Shown here in pieces: positions 678 through 47,008 of a stretch of 64,000 nucleotides of DNA; the stretch's first letter is position 1, and each line of letters opens with the position of its first letter. Made by a program: the position numbers and the translations under genes. The stretch comes from Flavobacterium lacustre (GTDB lineage Bacteria; Bacteroidota; Bacteroidia; Flavobacteriales; Flavobacteriaceae), in the NCBI RefSeq assembly GCF_027474525.2, contig NZ_CP114882.2, positions 2,728,001 to 2,792,000 of the forward strand, written 5' to 3'. The notes under the pieces were generated by a model. The model did no database searches. It was not told the origin of the DNA and saw only the letters and a program-made list of their open reading frames with translations.

Positions 678-2555
678 ATGGAAGCACTGTATATTTATCT
701 CATAAAATCCAGCGGATTAATAGGTCTTTTTTATTTAGGCTATCATTTAATGTTGCGAAAAGAAACATTTTTCACCACAAATCGTTGGTTTTTATTGGCC
801 GGTTTATTTACCTCTGTAGCTTTACCTCTTTTTGTTATTACCAAAATAATTTGGGTTGCACCTACACCAACAGCAATTGATTGGTCAAATGTTCCTATGA
901 CAACTGTTGTACAAGAAAAGACATTTGAAGATTATTTGCCTATACTCATTGGCGTTTCCTATGGAATGGGAATAGCAATTTTACTCGGAAAATTTGCTTT
1001 CGATTTTTATAGTTTAAATACGGTTTTAAGAGGAAAATTGATTCAACGACAAGCCGATTTTAAATTTATAGATATTGCTGAAAACGTAGCTCCTTTTTCT
1101 TATTTTAATACGATTGTTTATAATTCGTCTTTATACAATCCTTCAGAATTAGAAAGTATTTTAGAGCATGAAAAAGTGCATAGTGACCAAAATCATACTA
1201 TTGACGTATTAATTTCAAGGTTATTTTGTGTTGTTTTTTGGTTCAATCCCTTTATTTGGTTGTACAAAAAAGCAATTCTGCAAAACCTGGAATTCATTGC
1301 AGACAGTGAAGCTTCCAAAAAAATATCAGACAAAAAAGCCTATCAAATCACTCTTTTAAAAATAACAACACAAGAAAATTGTGTTGCCATTACCAATCAT
1401 TTTTATCAATCATTAATCAAAAAACGAATCGTTATGTTAAACAAAAATCAATCAAAAAAGTGGAATTCCTGGAAGTATGTTTTAATCCTTCCTGCATTAA
1501 TTGCCTTTGTATTTTTATTTCAAATTGAAACCATTGCACAGGAAAAAAAATCGGAACAAATCACCGCAGAATCTTCAAAAAAGAATGAAGTTTCAGTCGA
1601 TGTGTACAAAATAAATAAAAACACAACCGATGATGAATTAAAAGAAAAGACGAAAGCTTTAAAAGAAAACTATGCCATAAAAGCTGTTTTTTCGAATATT
1701 AAAAGAAACTCAAAAAACGAAATAACATCAATTTCTGTTAATTTAAAAAAGGGAGACGAAAAGACTCAGGAAATGGAAATCAAAGGAACTGAAGCTATCA
1801 AAACATTTGGAATCATTATTTCTAAAAATGAAAATGGAATCCTTACCATAGATTTTGCTGAAGATGATATTCAATTGAATAAAAAAAGTGTTTTAATTTC
1901 ACCTAATGCGCCTTTGTCAACAGATAAAGAAATTTTTATCAATGGGGCAAAAGTAACTCAAAAAGATTTAGATGAGTTAAATCCTAATGAAATTGAAAGA
2001 ATGGATGTCAATAAAAATCAAAATCAACATGAAATTAGAATAATTACAAAAGATTATTCAAAAATTCTTAATGAGAATGACATTTATATTGACGGTGAAA
2101 AAGTAGACCCAAGTGAATTGTCCAGAATAGACCAAAATACAATTGACAGAATGGATGTGAATAAAAACGAAAAAACAATTAGAATCATAACTAAGCATTC
2201 TAATTCTATCATTAATGGCTCTGATTTACCGATGCCTCCAACACCTCCTACGCCACCTGTTTTTAAATTTAAAAGTCCAAAACCACCTGTTTTTCCTAAA
2301 GCACCAACTGCACCAAAAGGTGATCCAATAAACGGTGATAAGAAAGCATGGAAAGAATTTGAAGCCAAAATGGAAGCTTTTGAAGCTAAAATGAAAAAAC
2401 TCGAACCTCAAATGGAAGCTTTCGATAAACAAATGGAAGAATTTGATAAACAGATGGAACCGTTTAATAAAGAAATGGAAATTTTTGAAAAGAAAATGAA
2501 AGTTTATGAGCAACAAATGCAAGAATATCAATCTAAATTGAATAAGAAAAAATAA
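678..2555 (+). CDS. BlaR1/MecR1-like M56 membrane metalloprotease with TonB-plug-like repeats and heptad tail
   Basis: 625 residues. Residues 1-110 hold three hydrophobic segments. The zinc-protease motif HEKVH is at 164-168, and Glu205 in NLEFIADSEAS is the likely third ligand, as in peptidase family M56. A further membrane segment lies near 267-285. The exported part differs from classical BlaR1: there is no penicillin-binding sensor domain. It instead has two tandem copies of a short module with DRMDVNK/ERMDVNK and a RIITK end, resembling TonB receptor plug fragments, then a Pro-rich stretch near residues 520-550, then nine consecutive heptads of pattern xFxxxMx from about residue 560 to 622. 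It probably works with the BlaI-like repressor immediately upstream as a sensor-protease pair. The ligand is unknown. Confidence 0.85.
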   Translation: MEALYIYLIKSSGLIGLFYLGYHLMLRKETFFTTNRWFLLAGLFTSVALPLFVITKIIWVAPTPTAIDWSNVPMTTVVQEKTFEDYLPILIGVSYGMGIAILLGKFAFDFYSLNTVLRGKLIQRQADFKFIDIAENVAPFSYFNTIVYNSSLYNPSELESILEHEKVHSDQNHTIDVLISRLFCVVFWFNPFIWLYKKAILQNLEFIADSEASKKISDKKAYQITLLKITTQENCVAITNHFYQSLIKKRIVMLNKNQSKKWNSWKYVLILPALIAFVFLFQIETIAQEKKSEQITAESSKKNEVSVDVYKINKNTTDDELKEKTKALKENYAIKAVFSNIKRNSKNEITSISVNLKKGDEKTQEMEIKGTEAIKTFGIIISKNENGILTIDFAEDDIQLNKKSVLISPNAPLSTDKEIFINGAKVTQKDLDELNPNEIERMDVNKNQNQHEIRIITKDYSKILNENDIYIDGEKVDPSELSRIDQNTIDRMDVNKNEKTIRIITKHSNSIINGSDLPMPPTPPTPPVFKFKSPKPPVFPKAPTAPKGDPINGDKKAWKEFEAKMEAFEAKMKKLEPQMEAFDKQMEEFDKQMEPFNKEMEIFEKKMKVYEQQMQEYQSKLNKKK

Positions 2556-3304: not shown

Positions 3305-3334
3305 TTGCAAGTTACACAATTATCCCTATATTTG
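3305..3334 (+). promoter_or_regulatory. Promoter of tRNA-Arg
   Basis: TTG at 3305-3307 and TATATTTG at 3327-3334, with a 19-bp spacer, match the Bacteroidota promoter consensus. The mature tRNA starts 43 bp downstream, leaving a short 5' leader for processing. Confidence 0.75.
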
Positions 3335-3376
3335 CACCCGCTAAGACGCTCAACAAGCAATATGTCTTACAAAAAT

Positions 3377-3450
3377 GGCCTTGTGGCGCAACTGAATAGC
3401 GCACTTGATTACGGCTCAAGAGGTTACTGGTTTGAATCCAGTCAAGGTCA
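3377..3450 (+). tRNA. tRNA-Arg (anticodon ACG)
   Basis: A 74-nt cloverleaf: acceptor stem GGCCTTG with CAAGGTC (one G-T pair), D arm GCGC...GCGC, anticodon stem CTTGA/TCAAG with loop TTACGGC giving anticodon ACG, and T arm ACTGG-TTTGAAT-CCAGT. The discriminator base is A3450. CCA is not encoded. ACG is normally edited to ICG by TadA to read CGU, CGC and CGA. It has its own promoter and terminator and is monocistronic. Confidence 0.96.
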
Positions 3451-3460
3451 CAAAATAAAA

Positions 3461-3497
3461 ACGCAATTATCTAATTATTTGATAATTGCGTTTTTTT
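3461..3497 (+). terminator. Terminator of the tRNA-Arg transcript
   Basis: A perfect 11-bp stem (3461-3471 with 3481-3491), a 9-nt loop and a T-run, 10 bp after the tRNA. Confidence 0.85.
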
Positions 3498-3586
3498 ATT
3501 TACCTCTTTTTATTATATTTAGTTCCTATTGATTTGAAAAGTTATTATAAATTTATTCTTTTTTTATTTTAATACATTAAAAACCA

Positions 3587-5677
3587 TTGAACAAAAACTT
3601 TCCTTTCATTTTCGTTGTATTTCTAATCCTATTTTGTTTTGAACCCATTTTTGGTCAAATACAAAAAGATACAACAGCGCTTTCTGAGATTATACTTGAA
3701 GCATCTCCCATCAAAACTACTTTACAAAATACAGCAGCATCAGTTTCATTCATTACTAAAAAAGATATTAATAGAAGCGATGGCGTTATACTTACCTCTG
3801 TTTTAAATAAAATACCGGGCGTTTCCATGCAACAAGGCGCCTTAAATACCAATAGAATTACTATTAGAGGAATTGGAGCCAGAACACAATACGGAACTGC
3901 CAAAATCAAAGCTTATTTCGAAAATATTCCGCTCACAAGTGGCGAAGGCGAAACTATCATTGAAGAAATTGATATGGAATCCATTGGAAGTATTGAGATA
4001 ATTAAGGGGCCAAATTCCACTAGTTTTGGTTCAGGATTAGGAGGCGTGATTCATTTGTTTCCGCAACAAACTACTTTACAGGAATCTTTTGTAAAATCAG
4101 CGACCACTTACGGTAGTTTTGGATTAATAAAACAGAATCTTTCTGCAGGTTATAGCAATGCAAAATCGAATCTGTTTTCCAGTTATACACATTTGCAAAA
4201 CGATGGTTTTAGAATCAATAGCGCTTACGACAGAAAATCGTTTAATTTACATGGAAAACAAAGAATAAATACAAAGGGGAATTTATCTTTTTTAGGCATT
4301 TTCACCCGTTTAAAAGCTTTTATTCCAAGTTCTATAAATGAAACTGATTTCTACAACAATCCCGAAAAAGCAGCTTCAAACTGGGCTGCTGCCAAAGGAA
4401 ACGAATCGTATGATAAATTGTTAATGGGAATGGGATACAGTCATCTGTTTTCTGAAAAATGGTCTTTCAAGACAAGTGTTTTTTTAAATATAAAAAAGGC
4501 AAATGAAGCAAGACCTTTTGATATTCTTAATGAAAAAACTAATTCTTTGGGATTTCGTTCTACAGTAAATTATAAATCTACATTGTTTTCAGTTCCATTT
4601 GAAGCAAGCCTTGGAACAGAAATGTTAGCTGAAAAATATCAATTTTCTCTGTTCGAAAATTTATATGCATCACAACCGGGACAAGGAAGTATAACCGGAA
4701 ATCAATTTAGTGGAATAAACCAAAATCGGGACTACATCAATTATTTTTTACAAATGGAGCTTCAATTACTCCAAAACCTCTATTTAGAAAGTGGATTGGC
4801 ATTAAACAAAACGAACTATTCTTTAAAAGATGTTTTTCAAAACAATGCTTTACCTCAAAAATCAGCTTACAGTTTTGGTTCCGTTTGGTCTCCCAGACTT
4901 GGTTTGTCATATAAAATTACTGATGGAAAAAACATATATACTTCAATTAGCAATGGATTTTCAGTACCTTCAGTAGCAGAATCAATGACTCCCGAAGGAG
5001 AAATAAATACCAATTTAAAACCAGAAATGGGTTGGAATTATGAATTGGGTTTCAAAGGGAATTGGTTAAATACCAAATTATACACAGAACTTGTACTTTA
5101 TAGCACTCAAATCTCAAACTTATTAGTTGCCCGACGCACTGCCGATGATCGATATGTTGGTATTAATGCGGGAGAAAGTTCTCATATTGGTATTGAATTT
5201 TCTATAAATTATTTACTTCTAAAAACTTCAAACTGGCAAATAAAACCTTATTTTTCAGGGACAATTAATACTTTCAAATTCAACCATTTTATAGATGGTG
5301 ATTCAGATTATTCTGGGAATGCACTCACGGGAGTTCCTGACTCACAATGGAATCTAGGAATAGATTTGAGTACCGAAAAGGGTTTTAGCTTAAACACATC
5401 TTTTAGCAGCGTAGGCAAAATTCCTATGAATGATCAAAATTCAAAATATACTAATGCATACCGTTTATTAGATATTAAAGCAACGTATCGTTTTAAAATG
5501 CTAAAAATCATAAAAACGGAATTATCTTCGGGAATTAATAATGCGTTTGATAAGTTATATGCCGCTAATATTTTGCCAAATGCCGTAGGTTTTGGTAATG
5601 CACTTCCCCGATATTATTATCCCGGAAATCCCAGAAATTATTATGGAGGAATTTCGATTGCTTATGTATTTGAATAA
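3587..5677 (+). CDS. TonB-dependent outer-membrane receptor (TTG start)
   Basis: 696 residues. A signal peptide covers about residues 1-23 (cleavage before QIQKD). The plug domain spans about 40-160 and includes LNKIPGVSMQQG, ITIRGIG and IEIIKGPNSTSFGSGLGGVI. The rest is a 22-strand-type barrel ending in GISIAYVFE. The start is TTG at 3587: an in-frame TAA lies at 3578-3580, and the first downstream ATG would remove the signal peptide and half the plug, so TTG is effectively forced. It lacks the N-terminal carboxypeptidase-regulatory-like domain of SusC proteins and has no SusD neighbour, so uptake of an iron chelate, vitamin or similar small ligand is more likely than glycan import. The substrate cannot be read from the sequence. 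Confidence 0.9.
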   Translation: MNKNFPFIFVVFLILFCFEPIFGQIQKDTTALSEIILEASPIKTTLQNTAASVSFITKKDINRSDGVILTSVLNKIPGVSMQQGALNTNRITIRGIGARTQYGTAKIKAYFENIPLTSGEGETIIEEIDMESIGSIEIIKGPNSTSFGSGLGGVIHLFPQQTTLQESFVKSATTYGSFGLIKQNLSAGYSNAKSNLFSSYTHLQNDGFRINSAYDRKSFNLHGKQRINTKGNLSFLGIFTRLKAFIPSSINETDFYNNPEKAASNWAAAKGNESYDKLLMGMGYSHLFSEKWSFKTSVFLNIKKANEARPFDILNEKTNSLGFRSTVNYKSTLFSVPFEASLGTEMLAEKYQFSLFENLYASQPGQGSITGNQFSGINQNRDYINYFLQMELQLLQNLYLESGLALNKTNYSLKDVFQNNALPQKSAYSFGSVWSPRLGLSYKITDGKNIYTSISNGFSVPSVAESMTPEGEINTNLKPEMGWNYELGFKGNWLNTKLYTELVLYSTQISNLLVARRTADDRYVGINAGESSHIGIEFSINYLLLKTSNWQIKPYFSGTINTFKFNHFIDGDSDYSGNALTGVPDSQWNLGIDLSTEKGFSLNTSFSSVGKIPMNDQNSKYTNAYRLLDIKATYRFKMLKIIKTELSSGINNAFDKLYAANILPNAVGFGNALPRYYYPGNPRNYYGGISIAYVFE

Positions 5678-46320: not shown

Positions 46321-47008
46321 TTGGTTGCTTTTTTTAGAACTGCTAAAGTAAGATTTATTTTGCGGACTTGAAAATTTGAAGGTTTGATAATTTAGGTGCG
46401 TTTGAAATTATAATGAAATAATATAGCCGTTGTGTGTAATTCATTTTAACACATAGAAACAGAGTAAAAAAGGCATTCCATGTAAAATAAAATGCATAGT
46501 GCCATTTGAAAAAGATATTTTGAAAAAGTAATTAAACATAAATGTATGCTTTTCGTTCCATTCTATTTTTTATTATTTGAGGCTCTAAAATAAGTAGCTA
46601 AACGTAAACCTTTACCCTTTTGACCTAAAATTTTACGTACAGTAGCGTAAAATTTTACGCTGTACCACCTAAAATTTTACCTTGCCAACCTAAAATTTTA
46701 GGTTCAAGACGTAAAATTTTACGTAGGGATACGTAAAAACTTAGATTCTTGACGCAAAATTTTAGGTTATTTTTGAGTTTTTATTGAAAAAATCAACACT
46801 TGTTTTTACAACTTATAAATGAAATACTACTAATTCTTTTTTATACCTAATTTTTGAAAATAGCACAAATTATTATTGGAAAATAATCACCCTTTCAGGA
46901 ATTTATTAACACTACAACGTTTTCCTAAAAACAAAAAAATAGGACACTCTCGTTTTAAAAAGTGTTTTACCTACATTTAACCAACTACAATAATTAATTT
47001 CTAAATAA
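46321..47008. other. 690-bp intergenic region between nadC and the amylase gene
   Basis: No coding frame that I can support. 46321-46600 is AT-rich with nothing recognised. 46602-46767 is the phased palindrome array. 46768-47008 is again AT-rich. A near match to a -7 element (TA, three bases, TTTTG) occurs near 46850, but the spacing is off by one. No operator for a known Sus or Mal regulator was recognised. Confidence 0.6.
46602..46767. repeat. Helically phased array of eight 16-bp palindromic units
   Basis: Units start at 46602, 46623, 46645, 46667, 46688, 46709, 46731 and 46752 (steps 21, 22, 22, 21, 21, 22, 21). Consensus ACGTAAAATTTTACGT. The units at 46645 (GCGTAAAATTTTACGC), 46688 (ACCTAAAATTTTAGGT) and 46709 (ACGTAAAATTTTACGT) are perfect palindromes with different arms. 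The first and seventh units are degenerate in the core (AAACCTTT, AAAAACTT). The spacers are 5 or 6 bp and unrelated. Two helical turns per step places all dyads on one face. Confidence 0.9.

What the first reader, a model, noticed from the sequence alone, without database searches (positions are those of the whole stretch)
46602..46767. Array of eight 16-bp palindromes phased at two helical turns
Between nadC and the GH13 amylase gene, eight copies of a 16-bp unit with an A4T4 core start at exactly 21 or 22 bp steps. Three are perfect palindromes with different arms (GCG/CGC, ACC/GGT, ACG/CGT around the same TAAAATTTTA), so the arms change together and dyad symmetry is maintained. The spacers share nothing. 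A4T4 tracts repeated in phase with the helix are known to bend DNA, and dyads two turns apart present all sites on one face. The array could be a multimer operator for a dimeric regulator of the amylase gene or nadC, a nucleoid-protein nucleation site, or a partition/origin-type site. It matches no repeat class I can name.
Basis: partly seen in the sequence, partly recalled or inferred. Interest (0 to 1): 0.78.

Follow-up and report, generated by a model that had tools for sequence, protein, structure and literature searches.

The report
Helix-phased palindrome arrays beside orphan gene
This stretch is one of several scattered copies of a regularly phased, probably bent DNA array, and arrays of the same spacing but different sequence sit beside members of an uncharacterised small-protein gene family in many related bacteria, which points to an undescribed DNA-plus-protein module.

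Summary
The array is real: eight 16-bp units at 46602-46767, steps 21 or 22 bp. It is not a private operator of nadC or the amylase: the genome holds at least eight more such arrays beside other genes.

The bending idea is supported by a wedge-model calculation.

The unexpected result is linkage. In Flavobacterium and related genomes an unannotated ~160-aa, predicted all-helical protein family has a 21-22 (or 43) bp array within 1.5 kb in 34 of 45 loci, and in 8 of 11 loci of a distant branch; controls gave 3 of 30 nadC loci (one is the window's own array) and 1 of 20 random loci. Unit sequence differs greatly between loci; the two-turn spacing stays.

Best reading: a helically phased multi-site platform for cooperative protein assembly, bent in many types, belonging to a gene-plus-array module with scattered orphan arrays. 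Binding was not tested, and the linked acidic protein may not be the binder. A REP/BIME-like selfish repeat is the main rival.

The parts
46602..46767 (.). phased array of eight 16-bp units, steps 21/22 bp
46602..46617 (.). unit 1, ACGTAAACCTTTACCC
46623..46638 (.). unit 2, ACCTAAAATTTTACGT
46645..46660 (.). unit 3, perfect palindrome GCGTAAAATTTTACGC
46667..46682 (.). unit 4, ACCTAAAATTTTACCT
46688..46703 (.). unit 5, perfect palindrome ACCTAAAATTTTAGGT
46709..46724 (.). unit 6, perfect palindrome ACGTAAAATTTTACGT
46731..46746 (.). unit 7, degenerate ACGTAAAAACTTAGAT
46752..46767 (.). unit 8, ACGCAAAATTTTAGGT
46591..46597 (.). TAAGTAG just outside the array, shared by several arrays of this genome (L146, L147, L148; L152 in reverse)
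   Evidence: sequence
46764..46771 (.). AGGTTATT at the other end, shared by many arrays of this genome and of G060
   Evidence: sequence

Best explanation
The feature is a helically phased multi-site DNA element. Sites of about 16 bp, in most types with a dyad-symmetric core, repeat every two helical turns, so that all sites face one side of the helix; many types, this one included, are also predicted to be curved. It is one of several orphan copies in this genome of an array class whose parent form is a gene-plus-array module: an array directly beside a gene for a ~160-aa, predicted all-helical, acidic protein. Shown: the architecture, the dispersal, in-phase length change, linkage to the gene family, and large sequence change between loci with the spacing kept. 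Inferred: that a protein assembles cooperatively on one face of the array and bends or wraps it, that this serves chromosome architecture or upkeep of the module, and that the linked helical protein is the binder or its partner. The confidence given is for this mechanism; that the window array belongs to the gene-linked class I hold at about 0.9.
For: Linkage: 34 of 45 gene loci and 8 of 11 distant-branch loci against 3 of 30 nadC loci (one the window's own array) and 1 of 20 random loci; 20 of 23 placed arrays lie 3' of the gene, 17 of them within 100 bp of the stop codon, and 3 lie upstream. Own genome: one of its nine known arrays, with the same core as the window's, lies just upstream of the gene. 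G012: arrays of the type beside its gene also occur at three other places. Spacing kept while sequence changes; commonest bases at core pairs 5/10 and 6/9 complementary in 18 of 19 arrays of other unit types. In-phase length changes. Arrays better conserved than their 100-bp flanks in 5 of 6 comparisons. Curvature z -8.4 for the window array, flanks ordinary. No RNA structure: RNAalifold predicts no pair, no Rfam family at threshold.
Against: No binding was tested. The linked protein is acidic (pI 4.8; median 4.9 in 41 homologs) and has no recognised DNA-binding domain. Proteins of 76-79% identity can have very different arrays. Within arrays of the other unit types no pair co-varies (z -1.7 to 0.6), and some lag-positive arrays show no clear dyad (L217, L276). 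The gene-linked pair L205/L263 has an array less conserved (79.3%) than its flanks (96.3%). 11 of 45 gene loci gave no array. G353 (99% complete) has an array but no gene.
Confidence: 0.5

Rival explanations
1. A selfish extragenic repeat that works like REP/BIME elements with their RAYT gene: the gene-plus-array unit is the parent, orphan arrays are non-autonomous copies, and the spacing is inherited by tandem duplication rather than selected.
For: Patchy distribution (strict A4T4 pattern in 8 of 398 genus genomes; gene in 22 of 121), several paralogs per genome, orphan arrays of the gene-linked type, gene-plus-array homology that ends at the unit while flanks differ, intergenic placement in 15 of 15 arrays.
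Against: The protein matches no transposase or other family. No recent move was seen: arrays in close species sit at corresponding places, and the G060 unit lies at the corresponding place in G316 amid changed neighbours. No target duplication or terminal inverted repeat was recognised at the unit ends shown.
Confidence: 0.27
2. A passive bent-DNA element: phased A-tracts curve the chromosome or attract general nucleoid proteins, without a dedicated partner.
For: 27 of 29 A4T4/A3T3 arrays have curvature z below -3; the window array has ratio 0.46 against 0.92 for shuffles.
Against: 8 of 22 arrays of other types do not reach z below -3, the GGT/ACC types among them, yet keep the spacing. The link to one gene family is unexplained.
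Confidence: 0.12
3. A local operator for nadC or the GH13 amylase gene.
For: Position in the divergent intergenic region.
Against: No match to the array around nadC in 17 relatives; the same arrays lie beside many unrelated genes.
Confidence: 0.04

Closest known systems
REP / BIME elements with RAYT genes (REPtrons)
   Same: Extragenic palindromic repeats in regularly spaced clusters, dispersed orphan copies, and a gene flanked by the repeats (PMC2817692 and PMC3733652, passages seen).
   Different: Strict two-turn spacing, 16-bp units whose sequence is rewritten between loci, no GTAG/CGTC end tag on every unit, and a partner protein that is not a recognised transposase.
Plasmid iterons and partition-site arrays
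   Same: Helically phased repeated sites next to a gene (general knowledge, recalled).
   Different: Found on chromosomes in several copies; neither the array nor the protein matched 72,556 plasmid records.
Phased A-tract curved DNA
   Same: A4T4 cores two turns apart, strong predicted curvature.
   Different: The spacing persists in types without predicted curvature, and there is a linked gene family.

Membership tests
REP/BIME with RAYT | extragenic palindromic repeats in clusters, dispersed in the genome | tested here: met
   15 of 15 arrays of G000 and G060 between genes (one overlapping ORF judged spurious); nine arrays in G000
REP/BIME with RAYT | GTAG or CGTC tag at one end of each repeat | tested here: not met
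   By reading: in the window array GTAG occurs at two unit-spacer junctions, not at one end of each of the 8 units; other arrays were not scanned for it
REP/BIME with RAYT | associated IS200/IS605-type tyrosine transposase | tested here: not met
   The linked protein has no Pfam, PHROG or NCBIfam match; it is predicted all-helical
Plasmid iteron or partition site | helically phased repeats beside a dedicated protein gene | tested here: met
Plasmid iteron or partition site | replication or partition function | not testable with these tools
   needs experiment; no plasmid match
CRISPR array | near-identical repeats with unique spacers of about 25-50 bp (recalled) | tested here: not met
   spacers are 5-6 bp and units differ
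Intrinsically curved A-tract DNA | curvature from A-tracts in phase with the helix | tested here: met
   model prediction for the window array only, with A4T4/T4A4 controls; no measurement
nadC or amylase operator | conserved in front of the target gene in relatives | tested here: not met
   17 nadC loci: similarity ends at or before 46393. One of them, L349, has a detector hit about 1.4 kb 5' of nadC. The array is kept only in the near relative L177
Structured RNA | conserved base pairing | tested here: not met
   RNAalifold on 33 three-unit pieces predicts no pair; no Rfam match at threshold

The most novel reading that the evidence does not exclude
A previously undescribed two-component chromosomal system of Flavobacteriales: a ~160-aa all-helical protein and its cognate, fast-evolving, helix-phased site array. 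Recognition would rest on spacing, dyad and bend more than on sequence, and orphan arrays elsewhere on the chromosome would be outlying assembly sites.
Probability: 0.35. Interest if true: 0.88.

Novelty: new variant of a known kind. Interest (0 to 1): 0.72.

Why it matters
An element that keeps a two-turn spacing while its sequence is rewritten from locus to locus is hard to explain by plain repeat turnover, and gives a direct test of DNA recognition by geometry. The linked protein family (596 homologs; 423 for a distant-branch member, the sets may overlap) has no function assigned in the libraries searched; the arrays give a handle on it.

Tried and rejected
Rejected: compensatory arm changes; RNA structure; nadC or amylase operator; array or gene present in the plasmid and phage collections at the sensitivities used (no match); a known defence protein (only one weak hit, E 0.022, for a distant member). 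Led nowhere: comparison of the linked protein's model with the PDB and viral models, no match at E 0.001 (the second look had one chain only); solved structures by sequence. Literature: seven searches listed no title or abstract describing these arrays; of PMC3733652, PMC12306157 and PMC2817692 I saw passages, of PMC3940949 only the listing. The library lacks most subscription papers. Empty-site test: the nadC-GH13 neighbourhood is not kept in the relatives, so no empty site could be read.

Limits and corrections. The first curvature run used a wrong sign convention and failed its A4T4/T4A4 control; its numbers are discarded and replaced. Wedge parameters are recalled. In some searches the rows L186 and L187 are chains that merged two neighbouring arrays. 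The detector rewards AC...GT edges, dyads and 21/22 steps, so percentages on these from it are biased upward; the lag test does not use them. A looser lag test gave 39 of 45 gene loci, but at the same threshold control lags gave 12 of 45, and 2 of 37 control loci passed: one a real orphan array (L293), one apparently a coding repeat in the window. Gene loci are not all independent (close relatives such as L205/L263; same-genome paralogs such as L208/L226). Loci L262 and L280 repeat L204 and L230 and were left out before the count of 45; 11 weak homologs were counted apart; one partial gene locus (L286) was left out of the 23. Only the best 30 loci per search were fetched. The model search of the family used strict filters: 11 of 249 genomes, the 10 besides G000 with weak matches only.

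Full report
The observation. The window (bases 2,728,001-2,792,000 of a 3.45-Mb single-contig genome) has eight 16-bp units between nadC and a GH13 gene, at 21/22-bp steps. Unit count, steps and the three perfect palindromes are as stated. That the arms change together is not borne out: over 154 units of 15 arrays the arm pair 2/13 is complementary in 65, against 61.3 +- 5.3 in within-array shuffles, and a filtered repeat agrees (102 of 258 against 98.2 +- 6.5). The array is far from chance: detector score 39.2, no score of 8 in 90 shuffles, nothing else above 12 in the window or in 1.0 Mb of viral loci.

A dispersed family. Two TAAAATTTTA cores at array spacing occur 14 times in the genome, the reversed control 0 times. 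With looser patterns I count nine arrays, a lower bound: seven with TAAAATTTTA cores (near 0.26, 0.52, 1.40, 1.89, 1.96, 2.04 and 2.77 Mb) and two with TCAAATTTGA cores (0.07 and 1.93 Mb). Read out, several share end motifs, and four are relatives over their length at 77-83% identity (L146, L147, L148, L152). Of the 15 arrays read in this genome and G060, all lie between genes (one overlapping ORF judged spurious): 7 between convergent genes, 6 tandem, 1 divergent (the window), 1 unclear. A looser pattern hit 7 of 100 relatives, five of them with one AT-rich match only. The stricter A4T4 pattern occurs in 8 of 398 genus genomes with 44 forward matches, against 4 reversed-control matches in 3 other genomes. 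In one-genome-per-species contigs 31 stretches matched, and in 27 of them an array of three or more units was called, in Flavobacterium, Chryseobacterium, Joostella, Chitinophagaceae and a few others.

How the arrays evolve. A MAG 96-97% identical over 6.9 kb keeps the window array in place. In close species pairs arrays differ in length by in-phase blocks of one or three units. Array identity against 100-bp flanks: 95.8 against 87.3% (window/L177), 97.6 against 86.3 and 92.7 against 83.2 (L186/L187), 92.6 against 89.3 (L156/L163), 87.2 against 85.3 (L173/L176), but 79.3 against 96.3 for the gene-linked pair L205/L263.

The gene link. One array of the own genome lies upstream of an unannotated 167-aa gene (L149), and arrays lie at that gene in related species too. 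Homologs in the genus (22 of 121 genomes) and the order (17 of 196) proved to have arrays of the same spacing but other unit sequences. A test by self-similarity at lags 21-22 and 42-44 (score at least 20 and 1.5 times control lags), or the detector, is positive in 34 of 45 gene loci and 8 of 11 loci of a distant branch, against 3 of 30 nadC loci of the same genomes (one is the window's own array) and 1 of 20 random loci, a real orphan array. Of 23 loci placed, 20 arrays are 3' of the gene (17 within 100 bp of the stop codon) and 3 are upstream. The distant branch is related to the first by profile comparison (probability 97.6). Of eight genomes with A4T4 arrays, six have the gene; G353 (99% complete) and G416 (75% complete) do not. 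In G012 arrays of the type beside its gene occur at three other places, where one search listed no copy of the gene.

What is kept and what changes. Unit interiors range over AAATTT, GGTnnACC, TATnnATA and TCCGGA types while the step stays 21/22. In 19 arrays of other unit types the commonest bases of core pairs 5/10 and 6/9 are complementary in 18 each, but within those arrays no pair co-varies; the detector mildly favours dyads, and some lag-positive arrays (L217, L276) show no clear dyad. Array profile similarity follows protein identity (Mantel r 0.50, 0 of 5000 permutations as high, 23 loci), yet proteins of 76-79% identity can have very different arrays: the array changes faster than the protein.

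Curvature. With a wedge model (parameters recalled; sign convention chosen so that A4T4 repeats curve and T4A4 repeats do not) the window array has an end-to-end/contour ratio of 0.46 against 0.92 +- 0.05 for shuffles, and its flanks are ordinary. 27 of 29 A4T4/A3T3 arrays and 14 of 22 others have z below -3; 23 of 29 and 11 of 22 are more curved than 95% of random tandem 43-mers of the same content. GGT/ACC types are mostly not curved, so bending is common, not universal.

The linked protein. It is acidic (pI 4.8), predicted all-helical with a long helix at 76-130 (mean pLDDT 86), without family match or fold match at E 0.001. Neighbouring genes are not conserved except in one subclade of six loci and a group of three.

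Interpretation. I favour a phased multi-site assembly platform that belongs to a gene-plus-array module with orphan arrays (0.5). The main rival is a REP/BIME-like selfish repeat (0.27). The binding protein is unknown; the linked protein is the obvious candidate, but its charge and the fast turnover of unit sequence speak against simple sequence recognition by it. In layout it works like a BIME or an iteron array; membership among REP/BIME elements fails on the partner protein and the end tag, and a replication or partition role could not be tested.

Noticed in passing
window 2370-2540: A 21/22-bp periodic stretch that reads like coding heptad repeats (lag score 64); a false positive of the lag test.
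   Followed up: no
L155:1930-2110, 3330-3500, 4180-4330 (G060): Repeated elements of about 60-150 bp between small genes in a region that is variable between G060 and G316; they might be gene-cassette recombination sites.
   Followed up: partly
L153, L154, L155:5900-6070, L187: A second dispersed repeat (around GTCACCCTGTAAGGGTCTCATAA) lies near several arrays in this clade.
   Followed up: no
L217, L218, L230, L231, L232, L271: A subclade of the linked protein keeps the same downstream gene of about 325 aa.
   Followed up: no
L276:1061-1469 (G815): A nearly perfect 43-bp tandem repeat beside a distant member of the gene family, without a clear dyad.
   Followed up: no
L179, L180, L181 (Chitinophagaceae MAGs): Arrays at the same spacing in another family, in L179 with some units carrying a different inner half (TACCCGTGC).
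   Followed up: no
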